Positions 1 to 33,465 of a DNA stretch of 64,000 nucleotides are shown in pieces. Numbering within the stretch: the first letter of the stretch is position 1; the number at the start of each line of letters is the position of its first letter. The position numbers were made by a program, and so were the translations under genes. Source of the stretch: Marchantia polymorpha subsp. ruderalis (taxonomy: Eukaryota > Streptophyta > Marchantiopsida > Marchantiales > Marchantiaceae); NCBI GenBank assembly GCA_037833965.1, contig AP031355.1:24701501-24765500 (forward strand), given 5' to 3'. The notes under the pieces are model-generated. The model worked only from the letters and a program-made list of their open reading frames with translations. It was not told the origin of the DNA and made no database searches.

Positions 1-1
1 C

Positions 2-2701: not shown

Positions 2702-2737
2702 CGTAGTGCAGTGTAGTGCTAGGTAGGACTTAGAAGG

Positions 2738-2746
2738 TATAAAATA
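2738..2746 (+). promoter_or_regulatory. TATA box of the E1 5' LTR with adjacent stem-loop
   Basis: TATAAAATA lies 37 bp after the ORF1 stop codon. A perfect 6-bp inverted repeat (CCAGGC ... GCCTGG, 2750-2766, 5-nt loop) follows at about the distance where transcription should begin. The same pair occurs in every LTR here that retains this region. Promoter function is inferred from sequence and position. Confidence 0.75.
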
Positions 2747-3728
2747 GTTCCAGGCGGTTTGCCTGGGGTTCTTTCCCATCAGAAGTGCAGATCAGGAACC
2801 CATTTCCTTTGCGTGTTTGTGTCCTTGAGTTCTGTCACCACGCACGAGGAGTTACAACTTAGCGTTCCGCATTTTGTAGCTGAAGGCCTTCGGCCGAATG
2901 TTCAGAGCTAGTACATTGGTTAGAGACTTGAGTAGTTCAGATCTGCACCTGCGGGTGACTGCCGATGCTCAGAGCCGGTGACTAGTTAGATACTTGAACA
3001 GTTTCGCCCCTACACCTTCGAGTGTTTCTTTCTGATTGTACTCCTTGGGATTTTTCCCCTGAATGCCAAAGTGAAGTTTTGCTACTTCGTGTAAGCCTTG
3101 GTTGTAAATTCAGGTTACGCTGCAGCAGGTGCCTTGAGGGTAACCCCTGTAGTATTTCTGGGAATGACAAGTGCCTGAGAATTCAAACTCTTCAATAGAC
3201 TGTTGTTGTGTTACTGGAATGTTTCTCAGTGAGTCCTTCAGTGCGGACCTGTGTTCTCTGCGCGTTTTGTGAGTTGAGAGTGTTGTTCACCGCGTAGGAG
3301 TGACTTCGATCCGAAGTAGGCAGTCCAAACCGGGTTTCCTACACTAGCAGCAAGCTAGTGGAAGTGTTGTAAAAGCCGGAGTTGGGAGTCACTGCCCGCA
3401 GTTTTGTCGAGTGTGCTCGCGAGAGACTTTCCCCCTGAAATCTTGAAGTAGAGGTCCTAACGGATCTCTGGGTGGTGTTTCTGTAGTTTCAGGTGTGTGT
3501 GTGTGTGTTACGCTGCACTGTGCGACCTCCGAGTGCGCTCCGAGTGGACACTTGCAGTATTTCTGGGAGTGACAGTTGCCTGAGAATTCAAACTCCTCAA
3601 TAGTCTGTTAAAACGTGACACTTTGTACCCTGTGTGTTCCTCTGTCCCTGTGGGTTCGACCTTTCTACCACTATATTGCAGTTTTAGCCTTTAGTGGGTT
3701 ATTACATAAGAAGCCGACAACTTCTTTT

Positions 3729-3746
3729 TGGCGCCGCTGCCGGGGA
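3729..3746 (+). promoter_or_regulatory. Primer binding site, tRNA-Asp type (E1)
   Basis: TGGCGCCGCTGCCGGGGA is complementary to the 3' end of plant tRNA-Asp(GUC) with one mismatch (established for Athila-like elements). It lies 22 nt after the LTR end rather than the usual 0-5. The spacer folds into AAGAAG ... CTTCTT. Confidence 0.85.
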
Positions 3747-3792
3747 CAGTTGCGTCAACACCGGGGTTTTTACGAGCAGCCATGCTCGGTGA

Positions 3793-6624
3793 ATGTCGAC
3801 TGGGGCTGGCGGGAGCAACCTAAGTGCTAGAGCTGTCCGCAAGTTCCGACGAGATTCAGAGAAGGCCGTGGAAGAGACACGGCGCCAAAACAAGAAAACA
3901 CCAAAAAGAGTACCTAAGCCTAGTTCGGCCGACATCCTTGGGGAACCTACCCCCGACGACTCGGAACCAAACTTGGTGCTTACAGTTCTACTAGATATTC
4001 CTTGCACGGACCCGCCTAGTGAAGTAGAACCGACCGCCCGAGAACCGTCGACAGACACACCGATGGCGGACGGACAAGCCAATGTGCGGCTACCTCAGCC
4101 GATTACTAAACATTCCTACCCGAAGTACAAAGGGAGTGGGGATGACGACGATGCAGATTCATACATCAAGTTGTTCGAGTCGGTGTCTATTGCCAATCGC
4201 GAGATCGCAGACGACGACCGACTAAGGATCTTTCCAAGCCTTCTGCGGAAGAAAGCGAGGAGCTGGTACAATCACGAGAGCATCGATCCGACTGGGTTGA
4301 CAACATGGGCCCAGCTGAAGGAGAAGTTCCTTCGCCGCTTCCGCGAGCTCGGCTACGACAGCCGGGTTTTGACAAAGTTACGTAATTTGCAGCGAGAGAA
4401 GAAGGAGAGTCTGCATGACTACACTGAGAGATTTCTGGACCTCCTCGACAGAATACCGAAAATAGGACCAGGGTCCCCTTTCTCGGTACAACAAGCTGTG
4501 GATTGGTACGTGACCGGTTTAACTCGGGAGATGGAGACTTTTTGCCGACGCAGCAAGTGCGACACTATTGAGGATGTGATTGCATCGGCAGAAGCCTTCG
4601 AAACTTCCACTCTCAACCGAAGAGGGAGAGAGAGACGGGAGTCGAAGGAACGAAAACCGAAGGGAGGGCGAAGACGACGTAGAGGTACAACTCCGTCATC
4701 GGAGGAATCGTCTTCGGACGAGAACCGTTCTTCATCCGAAGAAGAGGAAACCTCATCGTCGGAGGAGGAGAAGAAGAGGAAGAAGCATGGGTCAGCAAAG
4801 AAAAAGGGCATCCGACGAGTGACTACGGACAGAGCGCCGGGAGATATAGCTTCGAAGATGGAGACCCTTGTGAAGGACTTCGCCGATCTCAAGGTTCAAG
4901 TGGTAGGCGGGCATGATCGCAGAAAATCACCCGGGAGAGTGCGAGCGAACTTATGGTGTACTACGTGCGGGGCGGTGGGACATGCAAACACCGAGTGCCT
5001 TACCACCCGGCCGACATATCCAGTCAACGCATTAGAGTGGGCGCAACCGTACTATGGAGAACACCCTCAGTACTATGGAGAGGCTAGCGAAGAGACAGCC
5101 TACGCCGTCCAGTCGGTTCCTACCCCTCCTGCAGTTTCAGCAATGCAAGTCCCACGATATATTCCGGTGGATCGGGCCACTACGGTACCTGTGAGGCGGA
5201 GAGCACCTCCAGGGACGTTTGACCCACCGCCACCGCGAGCTTGTTATAATTGCGGGGAAGTTGGGCACTTCTCACCGCAGTGTCCCCATCCAAAAAGGCA
5301 AAACGATTATGCTCCGACATGTAGTAATTGCAAGAAGATCGGGCATACTGCGCCAGAGTGTGATCAGCCACCAGTCCCTCGGCCAGCGGTACGATTTGTG
5401 AACACTCCTGCCAAGGAGGACGTGCAAGTTAACCAGGTCGAAGTAGGTTCAGACGGGGATGGCGAAGACGAAGAATGGCCGGCTGAAGAGGTTATGTGCG
5501 CACGGGTCGAAACTCGTAGTTCCAAGAAATCGAAGGAGCAAGAGCGTGACACTCGCAAGCACGAACGGAGAACCGCCGACCCGACGGGAAAAGGAAAGGA
5601 GAAGACATCCAGCAAGTCCGACTTGCGACCTGCTCGGAAGTCTTCGGCTGCGCGAGAGGCACCAGCAGTGCGCCCCCAGACGGCAGTCGAGGACGAGCCA
5701 GTGCGCCTACTGAAACGGGACTATGCTCCGGATATCCGCAACGAGGTAACCAACCTGTTGAAGGAAGCGATCCGCACGCAAAAGGACCCACCGCGGCCAG
5801 ACTTGACCTCCTCCCTTGGGGCGAAGTTAGCAGCCACCGTGGAACCTCGCAGAGCGTCGCCGACCCCGGCGACCCAACGCGCCCACTATGACTTGGTTGA
5901 AGATCTCGGGAGTCGAAAAGTGAACATCACGTTCAAGCAGCTCTTGGAGGACAATAAGACGTATCGGAGAATGTTGATGCTTTCGCTACGGCATCCGCGG
6001 AAGCCGCGCGCATCCACATCCTCTCAAGTATATCAAGTGGAGAGCGAAGACCAAGGGCCACCCGAGATCGATGTGGAAATAGCAGGATGTTGTGTACGCA
6101 GAGTGCCAATCGACTCTGGATCAGGAGTCAACATAATGACGGAGGATACAGCGAGAGCCTTGGGGTTCAGTCAATACGAACCCTCGAAGCGTGTGTTGAG
6201 ATTAGCGGATCAGACGCGGAGAATGCCTGCAGGTATGCTGCGCAATGTCAAGACAACCATCGGGGGTGCGGACTTTCGGTTGACGTATATCATCCTTCAA
6301 CCGATGATGAAGCAGGGCTATGACGTTCTGCTCGGGCGACCATGGCTATATGGTGCACAAGTCAGATGTGATTGGCGAAGACATCGCCTTAAGTTTCCTC
6401 ATCCTTCGGAACCGACCAAAACCATTACGGTGCCCTGGAATAGGGTCAAGCACGAAGGAGAGACCCCATCGACAAGTGCAGGTTACACATCGGGCGAGGA
6501 CAGTGAGTCGACCGCGCGATCGGATTCCAGTGGTACCGAATCCGATTACTTCGTGGGATTCGTTGCCTGCTGTTCGGTGGAAGAAGAAGAAGAGCCGGAA
6601 GCTATTCAGCCGGAAGACGAATAG
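3793..6624 (+). CDS. gag-pro: Gag-protease polyprotein of E1 (943 aa)
   Basis: Structural protein and protease of the virus-like particle. Residues about 120-270 match the retrotransposon Gag/capsid fold (RARSWYNHES-type core, FLRRFRELGY). A Ser/Glu-rich charged linker follows (SSSEEEETSSSEEE). Three CCHC zinc knuckles are visible: C389-C392-H397-C402, C484-C487-H492-C497 and C510-C513-H518-C523. The aspartic protease active site is DSGSG at residue 774, followed by a retropepsin-like region with LLGRPWLY. The frame is open and ends at a UAG in leaky context; pol continues in the same frame. The start is the first ATG after the primer binding site (MSTGAGGSNLSAR), shared by the E3 copy. The B-family homologues start MSTSDSVGNLSAR. 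Confidence 0.95.
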   Translation: MSTGAGGSNLSARAVRKFRRDSEKAVEETRRQNKKTPKRVPKPSSADILGEPTPDDSEPNLVLTVLLDIPCTDPPSEVEPTAREPSTDTPMADGQANVRLPQPITKHSYPKYKGSGDDDDADSYIKLFESVSIANREIADDDRLRIFPSLLRKKARSWYNHESIDPTGLTTWAQLKEKFLRRFRELGYDSRVLTKLRNLQREKKESLHDYTERFLDLLDRIPKIGPGSPFSVQQAVDWYVTGLTREMETFCRRSKCDTIEDVIASAEAFETSTLNRRGRERRESKERKPKGGRRRRRGTTPSSEESSSDENRSSSEEEETSSSEEEKKRKKHGSAKKKGIRRVTTDRAPGDIASKMETLVKDFADLKVQVVGGHDRRKSPGRVRANLWCTTCGAVGHANTECLTTRPTYPVNALEWAQPYYGEHPQYYGEASEETAYAVQSVPTPPAVSAMQVPRYIPVDRATTVPVRRRAPPGTFDPPPPRACYNCGEVGHFSPQCPHPKRQNDYAPTCSNCKKIGHTAPECDQPPVPRPAVRFVNTPAKEDVQVNQVEVGSDGDGEDEEWPAEEVMCARVETRSSKKSKEQERDTRKHERRTADPTGKGKEKTSSKSDLRPARKSSAAREAPAVRPQTAVEDEPVRLLKRDYAPDIRNEVTNLLKEAIRTQKDPPRPDLTSSLGAKLAATVEPRRASPTPATQRAHYDLVEDLGSRKVNITFKQLLEDNKTYRRMLMLSLRHPRKPRASTSSQVYQVESEDQGPPEIDVEIAGCCVRRVPIDSGSGVNIMTEDTARALGFSQYEPSKRVLRLADQTRRMPAGMLRNVKTTIGGADFRLTYIILQPMMKQGYDVLLGRPWLYGAQVRCDWRRHRLKFPHPSEPTKTITVPWNRVKHEGETPSTSAGYTSGEDSESTARSDSSGTESDYFVGFVACCSVEEEEEPEAIQPEDE

Positions 6625-6630
6625 CAATTA
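6622..6630 (+). promoter_or_regulatory. Leaky stop UAG-CAA-UUA between gag-pro and pol (E1)
   Basis: The gag-pro stop is TAG followed by CAATTA, which fits the tobamovirus read-through consensus UAG-CARYYA exactly. Pol follows in the same frame with no other stop in between. Suppression is inferred, not shown. Confidence 0.75.
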
Positions 6631-6633
6631 ACT

Positions 6634-9465
6634 GTGGGACTGGGAAGGAGTGAGACGAGTCACACTGAGGGCATTGTCGACCCTAGTGACTGTCACGAAG
6701 TACAACTCAGTCCCGGCAAGTGCTTGAAGGTATCAAGCGCAGTGAGAGGAGACGAGCTAAGGAAAGTACAGGCATTCCTTAGCCATTATGTCGACGTCTT
6801 CGCCTGGAAGATCGAAGACATGAAGGGGATACCTGCACGGTATGGGGAACACCGTATCGATTTACTGGACGACTCAGTACCCATACGACAGCGCCAGTAT
6901 CGCCTCAACCCAAAGTACTCCTTGCTAGTGAAAGAGGAGATAGATAAGTACTTGAGCGCTGGTATTATTTACCCTGTGCTCAGCAGCGAGTGGGTGTCGC
7001 CGATTGTTATCGTACCCAAGAAGTTGACGGGTAAGATACGAGTGTGTCAGGATTTCCGGAAGTTGAATGCAGCAACACGCAAGGATCATCACCCGTTACC
7101 ATTCACGGATGCCATTCTAGACCATGTCGCAGGACATGAATGTTATAGCTTCCTGGATGGGTTCTCAGGTTACAATCAGGTGTCTATCCGTGAACAGGAC
7201 AAGGATAAAACTACGTTCACAACCGACTGGGGAACTTACGCATACCACAAGATGCCCTTCGGTCTGTGCAACGCGCCTGCCACCTTTCAACGAATGATGA
7301 CCAATATCTTTCAGGAACAACTGAGGAAGTTCCTGGAAATATTCATAGATGACTTCTGTGTCTTTGGGAAGCGGTCTGAACACTTAAGTCACTTGAAGCA
7401 GACCTTCGATAAATGTAGAGAGAGCAGTTTATCACTGCATCCCGAGAAGTGCTTTTTCTTTATGACTAGTGGGATCTTGTTGGGTCATCGGGTCTCGGCA
7501 GACGGCATTGCGGTGGACGTCGAGAAGGTCAAGGTTATACTCGAGCTTGAGCCACCCACGAATCTAAGAGAGCTGCGAGCATTCCTGGGTCATGTGGGCT
7601 ACTACCGAAGATTCATACACATGTATGCAATACTGGCGGCGGACCTGACCAAGTTGTTGAAGAAGGACGAGCCCTATGCTTGGGGTGCGAACCAGCAGTC
7701 AGCATTTGAGGCTCTGAAAGCGAAACTCACGACTGCTCCCGTACTAAGGAGTCCAGACTGGAATCGACCATTCCATGTTTACGTTGACACCTCGGCATTC
7801 GCCATCGGTGTAGTACTGAGTCAAAAGGATGACAACAAAAAGGACTACCCGATCTACTTCGCGAGCCGACAGCTGTCTCTAGCAGAGCGGAAGTACACCA
7901 CGACGGAGAGAGAAGCGTTGGGGATGGTGTACTCCTGTAAAAAGTTCCGTCACTACCTAATCTGCTACGAGTTTGTGTTCCATGTGGACCACTACGCATT
8001 GCAACACCTAGTCAAGAAAGCCGACCTATCCGGTCGAATCGCCAGGTGGGTGTTGTTACTACAAGAGTTCACCTACACAGTCCAGACCAGGAAAGGGGTG
8101 CACCACGAAAATGCGGATTACTTGTCCCGATTATGGACCCAGCCGACAGAGGAGGAATTGGTGGACGATTTTCCAGATGAAGAGTTATTTCAGTTGTCTG
8201 CAGGACATGAGTCCCGCTATGCCGACCTGTATCGATATTTGCTAACCCTCCAGTGTCCCGAAGGCATGGATTTGGAACAGCGAACTGTCTTTATTCATAA
8301 GGCAGGCCCGTACCAACTCCAGCAGGGGGTTTTGTTCAAGAAGATGGCAGATGAGCGCTTATGTAGATGCCTGGAGGAATCAGAGGTACCAAGAATAGTG
8401 AGTGCGATGCATACAGAGGAGGCGGGTGGACACTATGCCACCCGGAACACGGTCACAAAGATCCTAAATGCGGGGTATTGGTGGCCGACCATGTTTAAGG
8501 ATGTTCTCGATTACATCCGCAAGTGCGACAGTTGCCAGAGGACGGGGAGACCGACGCCTACAACACGCTAGCCCCTGACTCCCATCATGCCTCTAGCACC
8601 TTTCGAAAAGTGGGGTATTGACTTTGTAGGGCCGATACAACCGGTGACTAGAAGTACACGAAGGCGCTACATTCTGGTAGCAACGGACTACGCCACCAAA
8701 ATGGTAGAGGCCAGGGCCACCAGAAGGGATGATGCTGCCACAGTGGCAGCATTCTTGTTTGAGTCAATCATCACACGCTACGGATGTCCCTTAGAGCTAG
8801 TCAGCGACCGGGGCACGCATTTTTTGAATCAGATCATCGAAGATCTGACACGGTATTTCCACATCAAGCACCGGAAGACTACTCCATACAATCCCAAAGC
8901 AAATGGACTGACGGAGAAGTCCAATGGTCTGCTGTGTAAAATACTACTCAAGGTCACGGTGAATCACGCTCACGACTGGGATACGAAGCTAGCAGCCGCT
9001 CTATGGGCGTACCGCACAGCTGAGAAGATCACGACCAAACAGACACCATACTTTCTGGTGTATGGGCAACACCCGATCCTCCCGATCGAATTTGAAGTAC
9101 CCACCCAACGAACATTGGATTTGCAGAGGATGGGCGCAGAGGAGAGTCAGCTCTACAGGTTACAGGAGGTCACGCTGCTGGATGAGAGGAGAAGAGACGC
9201 CGAAGATCGCACCAGGAAAATCCAGCTCCGCCGAAAGGAGAGATACGATAAAAAGATCAAACCGGTACTCCTGCAGGCGGGTGATTTGGCATTGCTCTAC
9301 GACAGCAGGCATGCTAGATTCCCAGGCAAACTGCACCTAAGGTGGATGGGCCCTTACAGGGTTGTCGAAGTTTTCCCGAATGGATCCATCCAACTTGCGG
9401 ACCTGGCCGGCGATTTGTTAGGCACCCGAGTGAACGGGTGGCGGTTGAAGAAATACCACATGTGA
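6634..9465 (+). pseudogene. pol: Pol region of E1: RT - RNase H - integrase, about one break
   Basis: Numbering follows the open 943-aa copy in E3. Reverse transcriptase spans about residues 80-260 with the catalytic box FIDDF (D239-D240). RNase H follows with HVYVDTSAF (D385), TTEREALGMVY, HVDHYALQHLV and ENADYLSRL. Integrase has an HHCC zinc region (about 593-636, ending CDSCQR) and the DDE triad D662, D725, E761, the last two 35 residues apart. The C-terminus (RWMGPYRVVEVFPNGSIQL) is a GPY/F-type module without a chromodomain. The domains can all be recognised; this copy has about one break. Frame and leaky UAG suggest that it was made as a Gag-Pro-Pol fusion by read-through. Confidence 0.92.
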
Positions 9466-9489
9466 GTGTTCGCGTGGGCGCTCACAATT

Positions 9490-9500
9490 GAGGAGGGGGG
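9490..9500 (+). promoter_or_regulatory. Polypurine tract of E1
   Basis: GAGGAGGGGGG, two bases before the LTR start TGTGGTACC; it should prime plus-strand DNA. The preceding sequence (TGTTCGCGTGGGCGCTCACA) is conserved between families A and B. Confidence 0.88.
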
Positions 9501-10729
9501 CATGTGGTACCCCACTTTTGGCAATTTTGAGGAAATTAAAACATTTTTGGAAAACTGTACCCTGGCAGCATTGTAAATAGCCTTCGGTACATCAAAACAG
9601 AGTGAATCCGGAAGATCGCGGGGATTCTCGAGGGATCTTGTAGAATCTGGGATTTGGGGTGCCGCAGTAAGGACAGGCACCACCCTCCCTGCGAGCTCCG
9701 CAGTTAGGATCTCTACGGCGCAAGGCGCAAAACCCGCCTTCGGGGGCTGCGTCCGCGGCTGTAGGGAAACCCCCGTAATTAGGTAAACCCTCGGGCGCCT
9801 TGACCAAGTTAGGGTCCCGTTGGAAAGAGCTCGACGCGCTGATTCTAACGAGCCCAAGAACGCTTGGAACGGACGAGGACTTAGGGAGTTATCGCTACTG
9901 GAAGAAACGGAAGGAGTTCGCCACCGGCGCGAATTCCGCCTACGCGGAAGGGGGATTCAAGTTTTGTCCTATGCACGGACGAAGGCGTTCGCCTGTGCAC
10001 AGGCGAAGTAGGGTTAGGGAAGGCGCGAAGTCCGCCTACGCACAGGCGTTCGCCTGTGCACAGGCACTTCGGCGTCGGCGGAAAATCCGCCTTGGGCCCT
10101 AGAAATGCGCCTTGTGAGGTAGAAAGTGTACGGCGCCCTCCGCGCCAGCGCAGCGCCGCGTACGTCGGAAGAGCCGCCAGAGTAATCCAATAGGTACGGA
10201 CCGTGCGGACGGCACGGGTGGATGCGCTCTTGGACGGACGGAGTTGCGGCGGCGGAAGCGCCGACGGAGAGACAAGGAATGGACAGACTGGACGGAGACG
10301 GCTGACCACGGTCAACGCCTTCCGCGCCAGCGCAGCGCCGCGGACGGAATTCGCCTGCGCACAGGCGAACGCCTGTGCACAGGAGGATGTTCAAGTTCCG
10401 CGTCGGCGGAGAATCCGCCGAGGCTCCTGCCTGCGCACAGGCAGGAGTTGAATTTTTGTCCGACATGCGGACACACGCGTCAAGGCAGAGGGGGATTGGC
10501 CGAGGGGCGGTACGAACAAGTGTACCGCGCAAGGCGGAAAACTCGCCTTCGGCGCTACGCCCCCATGTCCGCAGGGCGACACGCTCGCGGAGTTCAAATC
10601 CGCCAATTCGAGCGTGAGAGTTTAATCGACGACGGCGGAGCGTGAAGCCGCGCGTGAGAGCGAAGACCGTTCCAGCGTACAGCCGGCGCGGCCATCAAGT
10701 GAGACGTTCTTCACGACCAAGAGCCGACC

Positions 10730-13700
10730 ATGACCTTCGACCGGGCGGCGGAGAACGTCCCATTCTTGAATTCGCGATTCCAATCTCTTGTGCGCGCTGC
10801 GCGCATCCATCTGCTGGCTGCGGACCATTCTCGACGTCGTCACACAGGAGATTTCTTGTTGATTGAGGGAGAAGTGAGTGCGCGTGATTTGGAATTGAGA
10901 GCGATTAGAGTTTGCCGAGAGAGAAAGAAACGCGGACAGTGCGGAAGTAGAATGAGCGGGCGAGCGAACCCCAGGAACGCAATGACGAGACCGAGCAGAT
11001 TGCGGATGGTGCCACTTCGCCTGCCGCAGAACGGGCTGCGCGCTTTCGAAGAGCGCTTAATAGCAAGAAAGCTCGATTTCTTGCTATGGGGATGGAATTA
11101 CATCTGTGCGAATATGGTGCGCGAGTGGCTAGAGCCACAGGGACCACCCTCGCGCGGATTACGTCCGCATGTTGACCGGTGGACAGTCCAAGATTGGGCG
11201 CAGGCGTTGGGAAGATGTGCTGGCATGCCAGGGCATCTCCTTTTCGACAGTGAGAGCATCAAGGTGACCAAACAAGAAGAGGCGCAATTTGTGGAGCTGT
11301 TCAAGACCGGGAGGTCTACCAAGAATGGGTACAGGACCCGTGATTACAAGGATCGATTTCGCCGGACTTTGTCCGCGGCGCTGATGCAATTACTGCAGCC
11401 GCACCGCGCCTGCTACATCACATTGTGGCAGGTCTCTTTTGTGGAGTGCGTCATCGAGGGAACTCCAATTCACTGGGCGAGCATCCTGCACAGGGTGATG
11501 CGACAGCACGCGTTTGAGGAGAAGGGGGGAACTCTAAACCATCTTTCTCCTTTCCTCATCAATTTTTATCGACAGCGGAATTGTTTGACAGCGGCGGAGC
11601 TTGAACATTTTCCGCCATTGTCCATCGACCATCCCGGGAAGTATGTGCGGGAGAACGAGGTCGACACTGACGCAGAGGAGTCCCCGACTTCTACCCCATC
11701 AAGACGGAGAGACGAAGGGAGACACACCCCTGCGGCGCGAGTGCCGCGGAAGCGGCGATGGAGGGAAGAGTCTGAAGAGGAGCAGCATCAAGAACCCTCT
11801 GCTCCCATTCGACCGCGGCCGCTGTGCGAGCCATACAGCCGGCCGAAGCAGAAGGCACGCAGACTGGTGTTACCAGCTGACAGTGCAGACACGGCGACGA
11901 TTGCGACGGAGATAGGAAGTGCGTCGCCAGAGAGGCGAGAAGAAGCGCGGACGACCGCAGGAGCAACGGGCCACGCTGCAACCTCGTCGGGAGAGAGGCC
12001 GCCTACGGGCCAGGGGCCTCCAGAGTTACCACGTGCGATGCGGACAGATGTTCCGTTTGCACACAGGCGAACCTCCGCGGACGGACGAGCCTCCGCGGAC
12101 CGGCGAACACAAGTGGACGTGGATCTACGCTTACGCGTGGGAAGGAGCAGTCCGCCTGTGCACAGGCGCTCGCCTGTGCACAGGTCACCTGTGCACAGGT
12201 CGCCTGTGCACAGAACACCTCCGCACGTGCCGCCTGTGCACAGGCAAGAATCACCCCCGTTCCAACGCAGGAAGGGGAAGGAGCCGGCGGAAGAACCGCC
12301 TACGAGACACCGGCCCTCGGGGCCAGACCCACCGGCGCACCACGCGCCGCAATTTGCGCCTTCGGCGCCAGGGCCTTCGAGCCGAGGAGATACGAGTAGA
12401 GAGCGTGCGGAGGCCGCACCATCGGCGGGAAGTCCGCCGATAGATGCGCCTTCGGCGGTAGGGCCTATAGGCCAAGGAACATCGGGCGTGCGGCCCCCGG
12501 CCATGTCGCCTTCGGCGATAGATGTCCGCGGCGCTACGCCTGCGGCGGACAAGGCGCCGGCAAATGCGCCTGCGCACGGGCCGGGCACAGCCCCCACGGA
12601 CCGATCAAGGGAGCAGCAGACGATGGAGCGGAGCGACTGTCCGCGGGATGAAATCTCGATGCGCGATGCGCAATCCAACCCCGCGCAGCCACCCTCCGCT
12701 CAATCGCCTTCGGCGGCGGACGACGGCGACAGAGAGAACGCGGTAGGCAATCAACAAGCGAGCGACGGGGATGCCGCTCGGGTACATTCGCCTTCCGCCT
12801 TAGACATTTTGGCGACGAGCAACGAGGCTGCAGCCGTGCCTTCGCAGGCAGCACACGTCGAGGACGTGCAGCCCCACTCGGGGCAGTCGCCGACGCAATC
12901 AATGGCGACTGAAATTCTCCACTCGGATGATGACGACGGAGGCTCCACGGAAGAAATGTCAGGAGCAGAAGACACCGAGGAGGAGGAGGAGGAAATTGTT
13001 GGAGCGCCGGCGGCGGCGCTCTCTGAGCAGGTGATTCCATTGCTGCGGTACTTGGATCGCAAGGTCGATAAATACGCCGACCCACTCCAGCCGGGATCTT
13101 ACATCGAGTTAGTGCGCAGGCGGACTCGCACTAAAGTCCACACCAGCAAGCTATTAGCTAGAGTGGACCAGGAGTTGAGGGACTTGAAGGAGAAGCATGA
13201 GTGCTTGTGGGGTCAGTACAAGCTTAATCAGAAGTTCTACAAGCACACCGAGAAGATGAAGGATGAGAAACTGGGCGAGCTCACCAAGGAGCAGGTGAAG
13301 GTCAAGGAAGCACTCGATTCTGAGCAGGCCCAGAATCGGATTTTGTCAGAGGAGCTCGTGCGACAGACGCGGTTGTTGGAACAATGTCAGCTCGCACGGC
13401 AGGCGGATGAAGAATTAATCCGCGGTTTGCAGTCAGAGTGTGGCGAATTGAGAGCGCAACGTGCTGAAGCCGAATCGCAATTAGTGATGATTGAAGAGGA
13501 TCGCAGGAAGGAGGCGGATCGCACGAAGGTGGAGACGGCGAGGCGAGTCGCCCACTGTCTCAAGGGCTACGCCCACTGGGAAGTGAAGGCGCAGGAGAAA
13601 CTCACACTGCGTGAGTTTGAATTGCGCGCAGCCGGGTTGTTGTCAGGCGACAGTAGGAGTCGGCGGAAGGTAGCGAAGAAGCTCGAGGCCTTTCTGTCGA

Positions 13701-13882
13701 AGGCACAGGATACCATGTCCGCCCTCGAGGGGGAGGTGTCCGCGGCGTTGCAGCGGTTGGGACTGCGCAGTCGAGCGGAAGAGTGGCAGGGTAGGGAGTT
13801 AGTGCGCGGCAGTCGGCCGCGCAGGAGACGTAGTACAGGTTCCGCGGAGTGTAGTGTAGCGTGGTTCCGTGCAGGCGTGTAG
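10730..13882 (+). CDS. ORF1-A, complete U3-encoded protein, 1050 aa
   Basis: Best full copy of the LTR gene. Residues 1-90: basic and helical (MTFDRAAENVPF...). Residues about 92-320: conserved domain with LRLPQNGLRAF, KLDFLLWGWNYIC, ALGRCAGMPGHLLFD, TRDYKDRFRR, GTLNHLSPFLINFY. Residues 320-725: low-complexity Pro/Ala/Arg/Ser, including a palindrome-coded PVHRS-type array at about 475-505. Residues 730-750: acidic patch. Residues about 765-1000: SEQVIPLLRYLDRK, then a long coiled coil and LTLREFELRAAGLL. There is no signal peptide, transmembrane span or zinc knuckle. The start is the ATG shared by the copies at 27309-30398 and 31692. I cannot assign a function; a distant link to the ORF1 proteins of Athila/Ogre-type elements (Pfam ATHILA ORF-1 or Transposase_32) is only a guess. 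Confidence 0.85.
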   Translation: MTFDRAAENVPFLNSRFQSLVRAARIHLLAADHSRRRHTGDFLLIEGEVSARDLELRAIRVCRERKKRGQCGSRMSGRANPRNAMTRPSRLRMVPLRLPQNGLRAFEERLIARKLDFLLWGWNYICANMVREWLEPQGPPSRGLRPHVDRWTVQDWAQALGRCAGMPGHLLFDSESIKVTKQEEAQFVELFKTGRSTKNGYRTRDYKDRFRRTLSAALMQLLQPHRACYITLWQVSFVECVIEGTPIHWASILHRVMRQHAFEEKGGTLNHLSPFLINFYRQRNCLTAAELEHFPPLSIDHPGKYVRENEVDTDAEESPTSTPSRRRDEGRHTPAARVPRKRRWREESEEEQHQEPSAPIRPRPLCEPYSRPKQKARRLVLPADSADTATIATEIGSASPERREEARTTAGATGHAATSSGERPPTGQGPPELPRAMRTDVPFAHRRTSADGRASADRRTQVDVDLRLRVGRSSPPVHRRSPVHRSPVHRSPVHRTPPHVPPVHRQESPPFQRRKGKEPAEEPPTRHRPSGPDPPAHHAPQFAPSAPGPSSRGDTSRERAEAAPSAGSPPIDAPSAVGPIGQGTSGVRPPAMSPSAIDVRGATPAADKAPANAPAHGPGTAPTDRSREQQTMERSDCPRDEISMRDAQSNPAQPPSAQSPSAADDGDRENAVGNQQASDGDAARVHSPSALDILATSNEAAAVPSQAAHVEDVQPHSGQSPTQSMATEILHSDDDDGGSTEEMSGAEDTEEEEEEIVGAPAAALSEQVIPLLRYLDRKVDKYADPLQPGSYIELVRRRTRTKVHTSKLLARVDQELRDLKEKHECLWGQYKLNQKFYKHTEKMKDEKLGELTKEQVKVKEALDSEQAQNRILSEELVRQTRLLEQCQLARQADEELIRGLQSECGELRAQRAEAESQLVMIEEDRRKEADRTKVETARRVAHCLKGYAHWEVKAQEKLTLREFELRAAGLLSGDSRSRRKVAKKLEAFLSKAQDTMSALEGEVSAALQRLGLRSRAEEWQGRELVRGSRPRRRRSTGSAECSVAWFRAGV

Positions 13883-13918
13883 CGTAGTGCAGTGTAGTGC
13901 TAGGTAGGACTTAGAAGG

Positions 13919-13927
13919 TATAAAATA
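13919..13927 (+). promoter_or_regulatory. TATA box of the E1 3' LTR
   Basis: TATAAAATA, 37 bp after the ORF1 stop, with a CCA(A/G)GC ... GCCTGG stem-loop just downstream. As a 3' LTR promoter it could drive transcription outward into the neighbouring DNA (inference). Confidence 0.7.
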
Positions 13928-14885
13928 GTTCCAAGCGGTTTGCCTGGGGTTCTTTCCCATCAGAAGTGCAGATCAGGAACCCATTTCCTTTGCGTGTTTG
14001 TGTCCTTGAGTTCTGTCACCACGCACGAGGAGTTACAACTTAGCGTTCCGCATTTTGTAGCTGAAGGCCTTCGGCCGAATGTTCAGAGCTAGTACATTGG
14101 TTAGAGACTTGAGTAGTTCGGATCTGCACCTGCGGGTGACTGCCGATGCTCAGAGCCAGTGACTAGTTAGATACTTGAACAGTTTTGCCCCTACACCTTC
14201 GAGTGTTTCTTTCTGATTGTACTCCTTGGGATTTTTCCCCTGAATGCCAAAGTGAAGTTTTGCTACTTCGTGTAAGCCTTGGTTGTAAATTCAGGTTACG
14301 CTGCAGCAGGTGCCTTGAGGGTAACCCCTGTAGTATTTCTGGGAATGACAAGTGCCTGAGAATTCAAACTCTTCAATAGACTGTTGTTGTGTTACTGGAA
14401 TGTTTCTCAGTGAGTCCTTCAGTGCGGACCTGTGTTCTCTGCGCGTTTTGTGAGTTGAGAGTGTTGTTCACCGCGTAGGAGTGACTTCGATCCGAAGTAG
14501 GCAGTCCAAACCGGGTTTCCTACACTAGCAGCAAGCTAGTGGAAGTGTTGTAAAAGCCGGAGTTGGGAGTCACTGCCCGCAGTTTTGTCGAGTGTGCTCG
14601 CGAGAGACTTTCCCCCTGAAATCTTGAAGTAGAGGTCCTAACGGATCTCTGGGTGGTGTTTCTGTAGTTTCAGGTGTGTGTGTGTGTTACGCTGCACTGT
14701 GCGACCTCCGAGTGCGCTCCGAGTGGACACTTGCAGTATTTCTGGGAGTGACAGTTGCCTGAGAATTCAAACTCCTCAATAGTCTGTTAAAACGTGACAC
14801 TTTGTACCCTGTGTGTTCCTCTGTCCCTGTGGGTTCGACCTTTCTACCACTATATTGCAGTTTTAGCCTTTAGTGGGTTATTACA

Positions 14886-15101: not shown

Positions 15102-16062
15102 TGTAATAACCCACTAAAGGCTAAAACTGCAATATAGTGGTAGAAAGGTCGAACCCACAGGGACAGAGGAACACACAGGGTACAAAGTGTCACGTTTAAC
15201 AGACTATTGATGAGTTTGAATTCTCAGGCGACTGTCACTCCCAGAAATACTGCAAGTGTCCACTAGCAGCGCACTCGGAGGTCGCATAGTGCAGCGTACA
15301 CACACACACACACACCTGAAACTACAGAAACACAACCCAGAGATCCGTTAGGACCTCTACTCAAGATTTCAGGGGGGGAAGTCTCTCAAGAGTACACTCA
15401 GCGAAGCTGCGGGTAGTGACTTCCAACTCCGGCTTTTACAACGCTTCCACTAGCTTGCTGCTAGCGTAGGAAACCCGGTTTGGACTGCCTACTTCGGATC
15501 GAAGTCACTCATACGCGGTGAACAACACTCTCAACTCACAAAACGCGCAGAGAACACAGGTCCGCACTGAAGGACTCACTGTGAAACATTCCAGTAACAC
15601 AACAACAGTCTATTGAAGAGTTTGAATTCTCAGGCACTTGTCATTCCCAGAAATACTACAGGGGTTACCCTCAAAGCACCTGCTGCAGCGTAACCTGAAT
15701 TTACAACCAAGGCTTACACGAAATAGCAAAACTTCACTTTGGCATTCAGGGGAAAAATCCCAAGGGAGTACAATCAGAAAGGAACACTCGAAGGTGTAGG
15801 GGCGAAACTGTTCAAGTATCTAACTAGTCACTGGCTCTGAGCATCGGCAGTCACCCACAGGTGCAGATCCGAACTACTCAAGTCTCTAACCAATGGACTA
15901 GCTCTGAACATTCGGCCGAAGGCCTTCAGCTACAAAATGCGGAACGCTAAGTTGTAACTCCTCGTGCGTGGTGACAGAACTCAAGGACACAAACACGCAA
16001 AGGAAATGGGTTCCTGATCTGCACTTCTGATGGGAAAGAACCCCAGGCAAAACGCCTGGAAC

Positions 16063-16071
16063 TATTTTATA
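16063..16071 (-). promoter_or_regulatory. TATA box of the E2 3' LTR
   Basis: TATAAAATA on the minus strand with the CCAGGC ... GCCTGG stem-loop downstream (16042-16058). Here the ORF1 stop lies about 560 bp upstream of it because of the inserted block. Confidence 0.7.
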
Positions 16072-16628
16072 CCTTCTAAATCCTAACTAACACTACACTG
16101 CACTGCCATGGTGCGAGCCGCAACAGATCCTACACCTAAGGAGTCGGCGGCTGCCTTCCCCTCTAACTTACAACCTAAATCTAACCCTAACCCTAAATCT
16201 GAATCCTAAGCCTACTGTACAGAGCCGCTAGCGCCTTCCCACCCAAGATCTGAGGCTGAAAATTTGCAGGCAGGCGTGGCCGGCCGAGATCAACGATCCC
16301 ACAAAATTTCAAATCCATCCGACCGTCCATCGCAAAGATATGGGCCCCGCAAGATCTCGGAACCTAGGCCAAAATTCCTTCTCCAAAATCCGAGGACTGT
16401 GGGTCCCACGCGTCCTACACGCAAGCCGCCTACTCGCAGGCCGCCTTGGGCCGAAGGCCCCTCTAACTGTTAACGCCGAAGGCCTCACGCCTAACCATGA
16501 AAGCCGCTTTCGACGCTCATAACTCATTGACGCCTTATCCGTTTCAAGAGATCTTGGTCTCGTTGGAACCAGCTCGTCGAGTTCTTTCCAACGAGACCCG
16601 AATCAAGTCAAACCGCTAAGAATTGAGA
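16072..16628 (-). other. Discrete ~555-bp block between ORF1-B and TATA box
   Basis: Found again, almost identical and with the same outer end (...AATTGAGAA), at 43043-43600, where different sequence follows. It contains a telomere-like stretch (CTAACCCTAACCCTAAAT, about 16181-16198) and a perfect 10-bp stem CTCGTTGGAA / TTCCAACGAG (16559-16568, 16586-16595), which also occurs in family A U3. So it is probably the U3 end of a third LTR type. No gene supported. Confidence 0.7.
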
Positions 16629-16632
16629 ACCG

Positions 16633-19251
16633 CTAAGACCGCCGACTCCGACTGTCACCCTCCGTCAATGCCGCCGCCCGAAGCTCGAACTCCCTGAGTG
16701 TGATCTTCTCTTGAGCTGCCACCTCCCAATGGGCGTATCTTTTTAGACAATGGGTCACCCGTGTCGCCAACTCTCCTCGCGCCCTGCAGCTGCCTTCCAC
16801 CTCTGCTAGCTGCATTTCCGCTTCCGCACGTTGTGCCCTCAAATCCGAGCACTCGGATTGCAAGTTGCGCAACAACTCCTCATCCTCCTTGCGGGCTCTT
16901 TGACTTTCTTCTAAGGCGCGCGTCTGGCGCGCAAGCTCGGCTGCTAGGACGTGGTTTTGTCTCCGCTCTTCCTGCAATTCCGACTCGATCTTTGCCCGCA
17001 TTAGCTCGGCATCCGCCCGACTTTTCGTCGCCGCATCCTCCCTCTGCTGCTGCAAGGCTTGGTATAGCTTCTGTGTGACCGCCAGGTGTTGTCGGAGGGC
17101 GGTGTTCATATCCACATATACTTGGCACCTAGAGGCCCACCTTGCCACCTTGCTCCTCGTCCTTTGCCTGATAGTCTCCACATAAGACTGCGGTTTTCCA
17201 GTACCCGCGTACTTGGATGTCTTGCGATCCAGATATCGCAGGAGTGGGACTATCTGCTCGCACAACACCCCTGTTGGCGTTTTCTGCACCGAATCCGCTT
17301 CCTGCTCTTCCGAGCTCGTCTCATCCTCAGTCTCGAGGATTTCAGTCGCCACCGAATCCCTTGGCGACTCCCTGGAACTGTGGCGCGCAGCAGCTTCCGC
17401 TGCGACTGCTGCTCCACTGCCTGCTAAAATATCCAAGGCAGTGGGACATCCCACTGCTTGAGCCCCTGTTCCGGCTCGATCTTCGGTCTCCGAAGGGGTC
17501 GACGCCGCAGTGACTCTTGTCACTTTTGCACCGCCCGCTTCTGCTGCCTGCCCTTCCGGCGCAATCTGCGCGGAAGGTGTCTTCGCTGAAGGTGCGTCCG
17601 CCGAAGGCGTCCGCACACTGGTTGTCGGCCCTGTCCGTCTCGCAGTCGGCGAATCCGGCCGACTCTCTGTTGACCGACTCGCAGTCGGCCGACCAGCAGT
17701 TGTCCGACTGGGAGTCGGATACACCTTGCGCGTCTTGACTCCACTTGGCCTGCTTGCTGGTGGCGTTTTCCCAGAAGTGCCTTCCGCCGACGACGACCCT
17801 CTTAGGGTTGTTGGCTCGTCAGCCAAACTCTCTTCTGCTTCCGGCCTGCTGTCCGGTTCAACGCGCCGTTCAGTTGGCCTTCCTTCCGCTTGTCGGCCTT
17901 CAGTCGCCCGACTCGTAGTCGGCCGACTGTCAGTCCGTCCATCTCCTCCCGAAGGCATTGGGGCCTTTTGTGCAGAGGTATTTGTCGTCTTCCCTAGAAT
18001 CTGCGCGATTATCTCCTCCTGTGTGAGATTCCGCCGGATCTGAGTACGCCCGGTCTCCTCAGTACCAGTTGGCATTTTGCGTGCCCTCTGTTTTGGTCGA
18101 CTGTGAGGCTCGGGGGTGGGCCGACCACGAGTCGGCGCAGCTGGCACTTCCGGCTGCCTGTCCTCAGGTCTCTCATCCCACTTCCGCTTTCGCGGAATGC
18201 GCTCACTTCGACGTTCTTCTGCTGCTCTTGTTGGAGCCGGAGGCGGAGGCGGACTGGCAGGTTCCTCGTCCGGATCCGTGTCTACTTCGGCCTCCCTCGA
18301 GTATCTACCTGGATAGCTCCGGGTCAGCATCGGAAACCGTGTTTTCTCAGATTTTGTCAAACATCCCATCGCCCGATAAAACACGATCAAGTAAGGCGAT
18401 AGATGATTGAGGGTTCCTCCTCTCTCTTCTTGCGCATGTTGGCGCGTCACCTTCCACAGGAGCCGTGCCCAATGCACTGGAGCTCCTGACAACACTAGCT
18501 CCACAAATTCTACCTGCCAACCATGCATGTAAGCGGTCTTGGTCGGCTGCAATATCTGCAGCAATGCAGTCGCGACATTTCTCCGCAATCGATCTTTGTA
18601 ATCCCGTGTCCGGAAACCGTTCTTGGGATGCCTGGCAACTTTGAAGAGCTCATTGTAGGAGATTTCTTCCTCCTGGGACACCTTCACGCTATCGGCCTCG
18701 AAGAGGAGATCCCCTTCCTCGCCGGCACACCTGCCCAACACCTGCGCCCAGTTACAAATGTCCCATCTTTCTGGATGTGGACGGAATCCGCGAGAGGGCT
18801 TGTGTCTCTCCTGCAGATACTCGCGCACCATCTCCGGACATGTCCAGTTCCACCCCCACAGGAGAAAATCGAGCTTCAGCCCCAACAGCACATCTTGAAA
18901 TGCGCGTAGACCGATCTGCGGCACCCTGAGTGGAGACACTCGCAGCTGGGGAACCTTCGACATTGCGTTTCTTGCACACACAAACGTTCTCCCTTTCGCT
19001 CGCCCTCTCACAATCGCCACTGCGCGTCGGCCGCTCAAGCACTGACTGCTCACTCTCTCTTCGCTCACGCTCAAGTTCGCTACTCGCAATTCTCTCCAAG
19101 GTCTGTCAAGATCCTTGCGCAACTCGTCTCTACACTCTCTCCTCTCACTGCAGGTCTCTCCGCCCTTGCGCGTACTCTTGGAAACTGGAATTCGCAAAAT
19201 CAAGAATGAGAGAATGAGACTGGAGCGCAGTCTTTTCTTCTCCGAATTCAA
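16633..19251 (-). CDS. ORF1-B, U3-encoded protein, 872 aa
   Basis: Family B counterpart of ORF1-A. Residues about 100-335 hold the conserved domain (LRVPQIGLRAF, KLDFLLWGWNWTC, LGRCAGEEGDLLFE, TRDYKDRLRR, GTLNHLSPYLIVFYR), by eye over half identical to ORF1-A. The middle is disordered but built of other repeats (GRPTASRSTESRPDS type) coded by CCGACTCGCAGTCGG palindromes. The end is the coiled coil (LLRYLDRKTSKYAG, LTLREFELRAA replaced by ITLREFELRAA). The C-terminus is shorter than in family A because the 555-bp block follows. The start at MNSEKKRLRS is the first ATG; upstream parts of ORF1-A and B can still be aligned, which supports an N-terminus of this size. Function unknown. Confidence 0.82.
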   Translation of the reverse strand: MNSEKKRLRSSLILSFLILRIPVSKSTRKGGETCSERRECRDELRKDLDRPWRELRVANLSVSEERVSSQCLSGRRAVAIVRGRAKGRTFVCARNAMSKVPQLRVSPLRVPQIGLRAFQDVLLGLKLDFLLWGWNWTCPEMVREYLQERHKPSRGFRPHPERWDICNWAQVLGRCAGEEGDLLFEADSVKVSQEEEISYNELFKVARHPKNGFRTRDYKDRLRRNVATALLQILQPTKTAYMHGWQVEFVELVLSGAPVHWARLLWKVTRQHAQEERGGTLNHLSPYLIVFYRAMGCLTKSEKTRFPMLTRSYPGRYSREAEVDTDPDEEPASPPPPPAPTRAAEERRSERIPRKRKWDERPEDRQPEVPAAPTRGRPTPEPHSRPKQRARKMPTGTEETGRTQIRRNLTQEEIIAQILGKTTNTSAQKAPMPSGGDGRTDSRPTTSRATEGRQAEGRPTERRVEPDSRPEAEESLADEPTTLRGSSSAEGTSGKTPPASRPSGVKTRKVYPTPSRTTAGRPTASRSTESRPDSPTARRTGPTTSVRTPSADAPSAKTPSAQIAPEGQAAEAGGAKVTRVTAASTPSETEDRAGTGAQAVGCPTALDILAGSGAAVAAEAAARHSSRESPRDSVATEILETEDETSSEEQEADSVQKTPTGVLCEQIVPLLRYLDRKTSKYAGTGKPQSYVETIRQRTRSKVARWASRCQVYVDMNTALRQHLAVTQKLYQALQQQREDAATKSRADAELMRAKIESELQEERRQNHVLAAELARQTRALEESQRARKEDEELLRNLQSECSDLRAQRAEAEMQLAEVEGSCRARGELATRVTHCLKRYAHWEVAAQEKITLREFELRAAALTEGDSRSRRS

Positions 19252-20324
19252 GAACGTCCAACGTTCTTACTGGTTACAACGTACGCATTCGGCTATACGG
19301 CCTAATGGTTCGCCCTTGGCATGCGCGAATTCACGTCTCCGCACTGCGCGCATTCGTATGCGTGAATGTTGAATTCTCCCGCCGCCGCCACCTTCCGGAC
19401 TCGAGTCCGCCGCAGGGTATACGTCGGCTATGTTGTCTTTTCCTAACCCGTCCATCACCGGAGGCGTGTCGCCGCTGGTGCGTTCCTTATCCGTCGGCGC
19501 CTTGCTGGAGGCGCACATCTAGTCGGAGCGAATTACGCCGGCGCGCAGTCGTACCGCTTATTTTGTCCTTTATGCCTCGTCCATTGCTGACGGCGCATAT
19601 CCGCCAGCGCAACTCATGCCAGCGCATCCGGCCGTCAGCGCCACGTCGGAGGCGTACATCCGACCGGCGCTTTTCTTCCATGAACAGCCGCCAAAGGCGC
19701 TTTCGACTCTGAGTTGGTTTCCTCCTATGAGCGCGCGATCCCGCCGAAGGCGCATCGCCGAGGGCGTACGGGAATCCTTTCCGGCTGTGAACCCTAGCGC
19801 GAACGGCGCATGTCCGGCTACGAGTTTTCCGACGCTCATTACTTCTCCGTCCCTGATCCATCTCCGACGCTCTTGGGCTCGTTAGAACGAGCGTCCCGAG
19901 CTCTTTCCAATGTGACTTCAACCAACTGGATCTACCGTGTATTCCGATCGTTATGAAGGTTTTCCCCTTCCGCGCCAGCGGCGCATCGCCGAAGGCGCAC
20001 TCATGGTCGGACGCCTTCAGAGGTCCGGGCCCTTCTCCTGACGTCTTTAGCAAAACCTCCTCCTGAGGTGTCTGCGCCGGAAGCGTAGCTTCCTTATACG
20101 CTGGAAGCGCGTGAGTAGAGACACCTCAGAAAAGGAGCTTTTGCCGAAGGCGCCGAAGACATTGGCGTTGGTACATCCGACTACGTGATTCTTCGTGACC
20201 TCGTGACGATCTCATCAATCCACTATATTTATCGTACCCTTTTCTAACTACAAACACTGCTTCGGTACTAGTTTTCTAAAATTGTTTAAATTCTGCAAAA
20301 AAACAAAAAGTGTGTTACCACATG

Positions 20325-26294: not shown

Positions 26295-27263
26295 TGTAAT
26301 AACCCACTAAAGGCTAAAACTGCAATATAGTGGTAGAAAGGTCGAACCCACAGGGACAGAGGAACACACAGGGTACAAAGTGTCACGTTTAACAGACTAT
26401 TGATGAGTTTGAATTCTCAGGCGACTGTCACTCCCAGAAATACTGCAAGTGTCCACTCGGAGCGCACTCGGAGGTCGCACAGTGCAGCGTAACACACACA
26501 CACACACACACACACACCTGAAACTACAGAAACACAACCTAGAGATCCGTTAGGACCTCTACTTCAAGATTTCAGGGGGAAAGTCTCTCAAGAGTACACT
26601 CGGCAAAGCTGCGGGCAGTGACTTCCAACTCCGGCTTTTACAACACTTCCACTAGCTTGCCGCTAGTGTAGGAAACCCGTTTTGGACTGCCTACTTCGGA
26701 TCGAAGTCACTCCTACGCGGTGAACAACACTCTCAACTCACAAAACGCGCAGAGAACACAGGTCCGCACTGAAGGACTCACTGTGAAACATTCCAGTAAC
26801 ACAACAACAGTCTATTGAAGAGTTTGAATTCTCAGGCACTTGTCATTCCCAGAAATACTACAGGGGTTACCCTCAAGGCACCTGCTGCAGCGTAACCTGA
26901 ATTCACAACCAAGGCTTACACGAAGTAGCAAAACTTCACTTTGGCATTCAGGGGAAAAATCCCAAGGAGTACAATCAGAAAGAAACACTCGAAGGTGTAG
27001 GGGCGAAACTGTTCAAGTATCTAACTAGTCACTGGCTCTGAGCATCGGCAGTCACCCGCAGGTGCAGATCCGAACTACTCAAGTCTCTAACCAATGGACT
27101 AGCTCTGAACATTCGGCCGAAGGCCTTCAGTTACAAAATGCGGAACGCTAAGTTGTAACTCCTCATGCGTGGTGACAGAACTCAAGGACACAAACACGCA
27201 AAGGAAATGGGTTCCTGATCTGCACTTCTGATGGGAAAGAACCCCAGGCAAAACGCCTGGAAC

Positions 27264-27272
27264 TATTTTATA
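27264..27272 (-). promoter_or_regulatory. TATA box of the unpaired family A LTR
   Basis: TATAAAATA on the minus strand, 36 bp after the ORF1 stop, with the CCAGGC ... GCCTGG stem-loop downstream. Confidence 0.7.
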
Positions 27273-27308
27273 CCTTCTAAGTCCTACCTAGCACTACACT
27301 GCACTACG

Positions 27309-33219: not shown

Positions 33220-33460
33220 GACACCGGCCCTCGGGGCCAGACCCTCCGGCGCACCACGCGCCGCAATTTGCGCCTTCGGCGCCAAGGCCTTCGAGCCGAG
33301 GAGATACGAGCAGGGAGCGTGCGGAGGCCGCACCATCGGCGGGTAGTCCGCCGATAGATGCGCCTTCGGCGGTAGGGCCTATAGACCAAGGGACATCGGG
33401 CGAGCGGCCCCCGGCCATGTCGCCTTTGGCGATGGATGTCCGCGGCGCTACGCCTACGCT
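31692..33460 (+). pseudogene. ORF1-A fragment in the left arm (N-terminal ~590 residues)
   Basis: Starts MTFDRAAESVPFLNSRF; the conserved domain is complete (LRLPQNGLRAF ... GTLNHLSPFLINFY) and the disordered middle is partial. The acidic patch and coiled coil are missing because the LTR sequence turns round here. The frame runs on by chance into the antisense of the other arm, so the long open frame that can be read is not a natural protein. Confidence 0.8.
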
Positions 33461-33465
33461 ACGAG

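What the first reader, a model, noticed from the sequence alone, without database searches (positions are those of the whole stretch)
9503..14885. A ~1000-aa protein gene inside the U3 of a plant-type LTR
The LTR borders are fixed by purine tract, primer site and repeated occurrences, and ORF1 (10730-13882) lies wholly inside. Plant LTRs are normally non-coding; additional ORFs of Athila or Ogre elements lie in the internal region. A U3 gene carried twice per element recalls sag of mouse mammary tumour virus. Open copies occur in at least three LTRs (10730-13882, 16633-19251, 27309-30398), and the 5' LTR of E1 is open as far as visible.
Basis: partly seen in the sequence, partly recalled or inferred. 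Interest (0 to 1): 0.87.

Follow-up and report, generated by a model that had tools for sequence, protein, structure and literature searches.

The report
Selected gene inside a retrotransposon's LTR
An abundant jumping gene of a liverwort (probably a Marchantia) carries, inside each of its two terminal repeats rather than between them, a large extra protein gene kept by natural selection, a placement known mainly from a few animal retroviruses.

Summary
Confirmed. The 5383-bp repeat 9503-14885 is a true LTR: TG...CA ends, a purine tract just before it, 37 nt after the pol stop, and perfect 5-bp target duplications at these borders in 5 of 6 solo LTRs and 4 of 5 full elements examined. ORF1 (10730-13882, 1050 aa) lies wholly inside. 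The LTR's only TATAAA is 36 nt after the ORF1 stop, so ORF1 is most likely in U3. A deeply diverged family B (4.9-kb LTR, duplications in 13 of 15) has the same layout. ORF1 is under purifying selection: dN/dS 0.22-0.26 between window copies, 0.05-0.14 in aa 91-320; other frames exceed 1, except the wobble-sharing reverse frame, which has stops. The genome holds 1764 + 1524 exact LTR starts. Listed homologues are all from Marchantia polymorpha or unnamed contigs. No Pfam match above cut-off, no PDB or fold match, no membrane segment. Most likely a sense accessory gene of a Ty3/Gypsy element, taken into U3 because the plus-strand primer sits at the end of pol; product probably a nuclear regulator (inferred). 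New variant of the plant 'additional ORF' kind; MMTV sag is a positional parallel only.

The parts
1..3706 (+). 5' LTR of element E1 (visible part; LTR starts at C6:24699855 outside the window, itself preceded by a purine tract)
   Evidence: 98.7% identical to 11149-14885; start located in L009
77..2701 (+). ORF1 copy in the 5' LTR, part visible; the whole ORF is 1039 aa, open
3707..9502 (+). internal region of E1
   Evidence: between the two LTR copies
3729..3746 (+). primer-binding-site-like TGGCGCCGCTGCCGGGGA (tRNA-Asp type as in Athila/Tat, recalled)
   Evidence: sequence; tRNA match not tested
3793..6624 (+). gag with zinc knuckles and aspartic protease
   Evidence: Pfam PF03732, PF00098, PF19259; PF13650 just below its cut-off
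6634..9465 (+). pol: RT, RNase H (6634-8571) and integrase (8587-9465); frame split in E1, no chromodomain hit
   Evidence: Pfam PF00078, PF17917, PF17919, PF17921, PF00665
9490..9500 (+). polypurine tract
   Evidence: sequence; tract plus LTR start (20-mer shared by A and B) occurs 909 times exactly in the genome
9503..14885 (+). 3' LTR (5383 bp), TG...CA
9503..10729 (+). non-coding U3 leader with clustered CACAGGCG / CCTGTGCACAGG sites
   Evidence: 6 copies of CACAGGCG; largest count of any 8-mer in 200 shuffles 4; none in R-U5, internal region or family B, but 6 also inside ORF1
10730..13882 (+). ORF1, 1050 aa, in U3
11000..11689 (+). conserved domain of ORF1, aa 91-320
   Evidence: dN/dS 0.05-0.14 within A, A2 and B; alignments A1, A2
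13919..13928 (+). TATAAAATAG, the only TATAAA in the LTR; inferred promoter of the genomic RNA
   Evidence: a single TATAAA at the same place relative to ORF1 in the family-B LTR examined
13949..14885 (+). R and U5 (start inferred as about 30 nt after the TATA)
   Evidence: nucleotide identity A vs B 0.71-0.82 in 150-base windows from 13853 on, versus 0.39-0.69 upstream
26295..31645 (-). second complete A-type LTR, with ORF1 at 27309-30398 (1029 aa)
15102..20322 (-). 3' LTR of a family-B element with an A-type tail; ORF1 at 16633-19251
49155..50342 (+). truncated ORF1 of subfamily A2
51075..54681 (-). family-B LTR, shorter than others, ORF1 at 51587-53344

Best explanation
ORF1 is a genuine, sense-oriented accessory gene of a Ty3/Gypsy retrotransposon family (no chromodomain found) of Marchantia, located entirely in U3. 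Shown: the borders, the position, the conservation in two diverged families, and purifying selection. Inferred: because the plus-strand primer (purine tract) lies at the very end of pol, everything downstream, ORF1 included, becomes U3 and is copied into both LTRs at each round. The genomic RNA starts after ORF1 (TATA at 13919), so it carries ORF1 once, at its 3' end, like env or sag; the DNA copy carries it twice, and a solo LTR keeps one complete copy. Inferred function (about 0.4): the protein acts in the nucleus to regulate or protect its own element (transcription factor or anti-silencing factor). It has a conserved domain that looks helical, conserved basic motifs, a proline-rich and then acidic middle and a C-terminal heptad region, and it diverges fast together with the non-coding U3 while pol changes little. 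The confidence given is for the gene in U3 under selection, not for the function.
For: Borders and duplications. The only TATAAA of the LTR is 36 nt (A) and 32 nt (B, L031) after the ORF1 stop. dN/dS 0.25 (A vs A_27309), 0.22 and 0.26 (A and A_27309 vs A2), 0.25 (B vs B); domain 0.05, 0.14, 0.12. Other forward frames and two of three reverse frames give 1.14-1.90; the third reverse frame, which shares the wobble position, gives 0.27-0.31 but has 7-15 stops. A vs B: pol dN 0.06-0.07, gag 0.24-0.31, ORF1 0.52, with saturated or near-saturated dS. Eight groups of open ORF1 copies lie 11.1-11.2 kb apart on one strand, as expected of LTRs flanking one internal region. A M. polymorpha gene model, P0117, joins integrase directly to ORF1 in the same orientation (1 of 127 proteins). 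Basic motifs shared by A and B, no membrane segment, heptad region.
Against: No RNA or protein evidence: expression, splicing and the start of R are unknown. No TATAAA upstream of ORF1, so a private promoter is not evident. The function has no homology support: no Pfam match above a curated cut-off (the best below it was Extensin_1, E 0.00019, to P0001), no PDB sequence match, a model of low confidence (pLDDT 48) with no fold match at E 0.001. The first 90 residues are only weakly constrained (0.43 and 0.63). Many copies are broken: 28 of 58 scored B hits have a stop, and of the 20 fetched B loci only 6 have the full 851-853-aa frame. Copies fetched by protein score are biased to low dN, so the ratios from them are not used as proof. 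Differences between neighbouring ORF1 copies of one element or array are too few to show neutrality after insertion.
Confidence: 0.85

Rival explanations
1. ORF1 is an env-like gene of the internal region and the LTR borders are misplaced.
For: It follows pol in the same orientation, the usual place of env-like additional ORFs (PMC7264820, part 1 of 3 read).
Against: Target duplications fix the borders; solo LTRs contain it; no transmembrane segment, maximum hydropathy 1.14 in A and 1.37 in B.
Confidence: 0.02
2. ORF1 is a recently captured host gene or a chance long frame in GC-rich DNA.
For: GC of 0.60-0.61 in the ORF region and an antisense frame of 296 aa.
Against: Frame-specific constraint, presence in A, A2, B and M. 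polymorpha, synonymous saturation between A and B.
Confidence: 0.03
3. ORF1 protein is a structural or replication helper (particle, RNA or integration factor) rather than a nuclear regulator.
For: A helical domain plus a coiled-coil-like C-terminus would suit it (the model is weak); its position at the 3' end of the genomic RNA is that of env-like genes.
Against: No similarity to gag by profile comparison; conserved basic motifs suit a nuclear protein.
Confidence: 0.35
4. The protein is a host-directed silencing suppressor acting in trans without binding its own U3.
For: Fast divergence relative to pol is what a host conflict would give.
Against: Nothing here links it to a host target; dN/dS stays well below 1.
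Confidence: 0.2

Closest known systems
Additional ORFs of plant LTR retrotransposons, sense, between pol and 3' LTR (Athila, Bagy2; review PMC7264820, part 1 of 3 and passages read)
   Same: extra sense ORF after pol, present in many copies, conserved
   Different: those are described in the internal region, some env-like with membrane segments; here the ORF is inside U3 and has none
Retand/Grande antisense ORFs (TRP28 domain, PF04195; PMC11963269, abstract and other passages seen; only the title of the Grande paper seen in a reference list)
   Same: accessory ORF beyond pol, possible DNA-binding or nuclear regulator
   Different: antisense, internal, with a Pfam domain that none of 23 ORF1 members matched
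Retrosat2/RIRE3/RIRE8 ORF0 (rice; PMC3485330, abstract and other passages seen)
   Same: long LTRs (about 3 kb or more), a fast-evolving lineage-restricted extra ORF
   Different: ORF0 is upstream of gag-pol and, in the passages seen, not said to lie in the LTR
MMTV sag (placement and two copies per provirus recalled; PMC11998498 passages and a cited title)
   Same: reading frame inside the 3' LTR
   Different: type II membrane superantigen of a vertebrate retrovirus; no membrane segment or relation here
VANC anti-silencing proteins of VANDAL DNA transposons (recalled; paper listing only)
   Same: working analogy: fast-evolving protein with family-specific motif clusters in its own non-coding DNA
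   Different: DNA transposon, no homology tested, no binding data here

Membership tests
Ty3/Gypsy LTR retrotransposon | gag, protease, RT, RNase H, integrase in this order between LTRs | tested here: met
   Pfam domains in order (protease match just below its cut-off), LTRs with 5-bp duplications
Tat/Athila clade | RT phylogeny within the clade | not tested
Tat/Athila clade | no chromodomain after integrase | tested here: met
   no chromodomain match in the scan of 8587-9462
Plant additional ORF, sense, pol to 3' LTR | conserved in many copies, sense, downstream of pol | tested here: met
Plant additional ORF, sense, pol to 3' LTR | lies in the internal region, outside the LTR | tested here: not met
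Env-like protein | transmembrane segment | tested here: not met
   no 19-residue window above 1.6 in A or B
MMTV sag | reading frame in U3 | tested here: met
   position between purine tract and TATA; R start inferred
MMTV sag | type II membrane superantigen | tested here: not met
   no membrane segment; no homology to it listed
Retand TRP28 / plant transposon-protein domains (PF04195, PF20167) | Pfam match | tested here: not met
   neither among the matches up to E 10 of 23 members (weak matches can be lost to filters); the genome search with PF20167 found nothing, but its control rang nowhere
VANC-like anti-silencer | binds own non-coding repeats and removes methylation | not testable with these tools
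   motif clusters only

The most novel reading that the evidence does not exclude
Each LTR of this family with an open ORF1, solo LTRs included, is a self-sufficient gene cassette whose product recognises the family's own U3 (CCTGTGCACAGG/CACAGGCG clusters in family A) and keeps it from being silenced. Recombination to a solo LTR, which normally ends an element, would then leave many copies still feeding the factor, and U3 and ORF1 would evolve as a matched pair that defines the family.
Probability: 0.2. Interest if true: 0.88.

Novelty: new variant of a known kind. Interest (0 to 1): 0.7.

Why it matters
In plants the LTR is treated as regulatory DNA and accessory ORFs as internal. Here a gene of about 1000 codons under selection sits in U3 of two old families whose exact LTR starts number over three thousand. 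It is carried twice per element and survives in solo LTRs. This gives a plant counterpart in position to retroviral U3 genes, accounts for about 115 'hypothetical proteins' of Marchantia polymorpha, and makes a U3-encoded regulator testable in a genetic model plant.

Tried and rejected
Misplaced borders: rejected by target duplications. Chance frame: rejected by the frame control. Gag-derived ORF: hhalign gave no similarity. Known domains: Pfam at E up to 10, for 6 proteins and over 23 aligned members, gave only scattered matches below cut-off. PF20167, which I suspected by eye, gave nothing; its genome search is uninformative because no control rang. Structure: the model of aa 85-330 has pLDDT 48 and its fold search is meaningless; the second structure job was not used. 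Relatives outside Marchantia: none among the listed matches of three protein searches, each scoring just under 8000 candidates (one search lists 120 of 122). Low dN/dS among the 15 open A copies (0.17 pooled) is not used as proof because those copies were picked by protein score. Comparison of neighbouring ORF1 copies of one element or array: too few changes (6 synonymous, 8 non-synonymous summed over four comparisons), inconclusive. ORF1 location inside the LTR in M. polymorpha could not be tested (no DNA held); only its place after integrase was seen, in 1 of 127 proteins. A further-family search with P0003 did not complete. Papers seen only as passages without bearing on the case: PMC10787394, PMC9985172, PMC9289625, PMC6317226.
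Full report
Setting. The window lies in a genome of 241 Mb in 9 contigs. The window is made of nested Ty3/Gypsy elements and LTRs of two families, A and B, and a subfamily A2.

Borders. Element E1 has a 5' LTR ending at 3706, an internal region 3707-9502 with gag-protease, RT-RNase H and integrase, and a 3' LTR 9503-14885. The purine tract ends 2 nt before 9503, and the pol stop ends at 9465. Both LTR ends are TG and CA. E1's own 5' LTR is preceded by another purine tract, so E1 sits in a tandem array and cannot itself show a target duplication; other copies do. In one search, of 6 distinct family-A LTRs with non-element DNA on both sides, 5 have a perfect 5-bp duplication at exactly these ends (AAGGC, CTGAC, GCAAT, TTGCG, AATCG) and L027 has none. 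Of 5 full elements, 4 have one (TTCCG, AGACC, GGTCG, CTGCT) and one has a mismatch (GGCGG/GGTGG). Of 20 family-B loci, 15 gave a complete LTR of 4860-4959 bp, and 13 of these have a perfect duplication. The A-type LTR at 26295-31645 has none.

Position in U3. The family-A LTR has one TATAAA, at 13919, 36 nt after the last base of the ORF1 stop codon (13882). The family-B LTR examined (L031) also has one, 32 nt after its ORF1 stop. In 150-base windows from 13853 on A and B are 0.71-0.82 identical, against 0.39-0.61 in the non-coding U3. So the genomic RNA most likely starts after ORF1, and ORF1 is in U3. This is sequence inference without RNA data.

Coding and selection. ORF1 is open over 1050 codons in E1's 3' LTR and over 1039 in its 5' LTR. 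In the whole genome 41 of the 44 scored hits of family A and 30 of the 58 scored hits of family B have no stop (ranked by protein score). Of the 20 fetched B loci, 6 have the full 851-853-aa frame and L029 has 776 aa; the rest are broken. Between copies within the window, which were not chosen by score, dN/dS is 0.25 (A vs A_27309), 0.22 and 0.26 (A and A_27309 vs A2) and 0.25 (B vs B). In aa 91-320 it is 0.05, 0.14 and 0.12; in aa 1-90 it is 0.43 and 0.63. The same alignments in the other frames give 1.14-1.90, except the reverse frame that shares the wobble base (0.27-0.31), which holds 7-15 stops. Controls: pol 0.04 and 0.10, gag 0.13. ORF1 is thus constrained, less strongly than pol.

Age and spread. 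Between A and B, pol dN is 0.06-0.07 with saturated dS; ORF1 of B is 43% identical to A in alignment A1. Three protein searches list relatives only from M. polymorpha and from contigs without a name; the last lists 120 of 122 matches, the weakest listed at E 3e-27. By my count 115 of the 127 proteins returned are named M. polymorpha. One of the 127, P0117, is a gene model in which integrase (70% identical) is joined to ORF1 in the same direction. This puts ORF1 after pol in a second species, though not yet inside an LTR.

Numbers. Exact 20-21-mers in the genome: 1764 A-type LTR starts, 1524 B-type starts, 909 purine-tract/LTR-start junctions, a string shared by A and B, and 806 LTR-end/internal junctions of the A type; the reversed-pattern control gave 0 each time. 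The excess of starts over junctions suggests many solo LTRs; exact matching makes this rough.

The protein. Conserved domain aa 91-320, predicted helical but at low confidence (pLDDT 48); basic motifs PRKR(R/K)W and RPKQ(K/R)AR shared by A and B; a middle rich in proline and then acidic; a C-terminal heptad region; no membrane segment. No Pfam match above a cut-off, no PDB-sequence match, no fold match at E 0.001, and no similarity to gag.

How it most likely works. With the plus-strand primer at the end of pol, U3 spans from there to the TATA and takes ORF1 with it, so each round of reverse transcription writes ORF1 into both LTRs (established LTR biology applied to the anatomy found). The product is most likely a nuclear factor acting on its own element. 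The non-coding U3 of family A holds clusters of CACAGGCG and the palindrome CCTGTGCACAGG (6 CACAGGCG in 1227 bp; in 200 shuffles no 8-mer exceeded 4; none in R-U5, the internal region or B). The B leader shows no such enrichment (top 8-mers 3, shuffle maximum 5), which speaks against a simple general rule. That fits a matched factor-site pair in A but does not prove it: the same motif also occurs inside ORF1 of A (6 CACAGGCG), where it encodes PVHR repeats, so spread by repeat slippage is possible.

What is known. [quoted passage not shown] Retand ORFs are antisense and internal (PMC11963269, abstract and passages). Rice Retrosat2 has long LTRs but its ORF0 is upstream of gag-pol (PMC3485330, abstract and passages). 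PMC10508981 (passages) reports Tat clades in Marchantia. The word searches of the open-access library (listings seen) showed no paper describing a coding ORF inside a plant LTR; subscription papers are mostly not held. MMTV sag is the known positional parallel (recalled; passages).

Verdict. A real and selected gene in U3 of an abundant liverwort retrotransposon: a new variant of the known plant additional-ORF kind, function unproven.

Noticed in passing
window 9992-10441, 12155-12244, 28950-31136, 33117-35757, 48360-50957: The 12-mer CCTGYGCRCAGG occurs 35 times in the window (0.04 expected), in A/A2-type LTR sequence (43814 in a weaker A-like piece), both in the non-coding leader and inside ORF1 as PVHR repeats.
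   Followed up: partly
window 13931-13949 and the family-B equivalent in L031: A short hairpin just after the TATA (CCAGGCGTTTTGCCTGG in 9 of 10 A loci printed, CAAGGCGTTTTGCCTTGG in the B LTR) with an apparent compensatory change; may lie at the 5' end of the RNA.
   Followed up: no
C2:31345303-31390058, C3:10615793-10641359: LTR-internal units repeat head to tail at 11.18-11.21 kb (five A-type LTR starts on C2, three ORF1 hits on C3), i.e. tandem elements sharing LTRs; E1 itself is in such an array.
   Followed up: no
C1:2325709, 2719142, 3085262 and similar: The same ORF1 and LTR matches recur three times on C1 about 0.36-0.39 Mb apart, which suggests a large triplicated segment on this contig.
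   Followed up: no
window 15102-20322 and 42068-45116: LTRs with a family-B head and a family-A tail, evidence of recombination between the two families.
   Followed up: partly
window 31646-36268: Partial A-type LTRs in inverted arrangement next to the LTR at 26295-31645.
   Followed up: no
window 8571-8587: E1's pol frame is split here, while the pol at 36306-38951 (minus strand) is open over 881 aa.
   Followed up: no
proteins P0001-P0127: About 115 M. polymorpha 'hypothetical proteins' (AXG93_*) belong to this retrotransposon ORF family, a likely source of false host genes in that annotation.
   Followed up: partly
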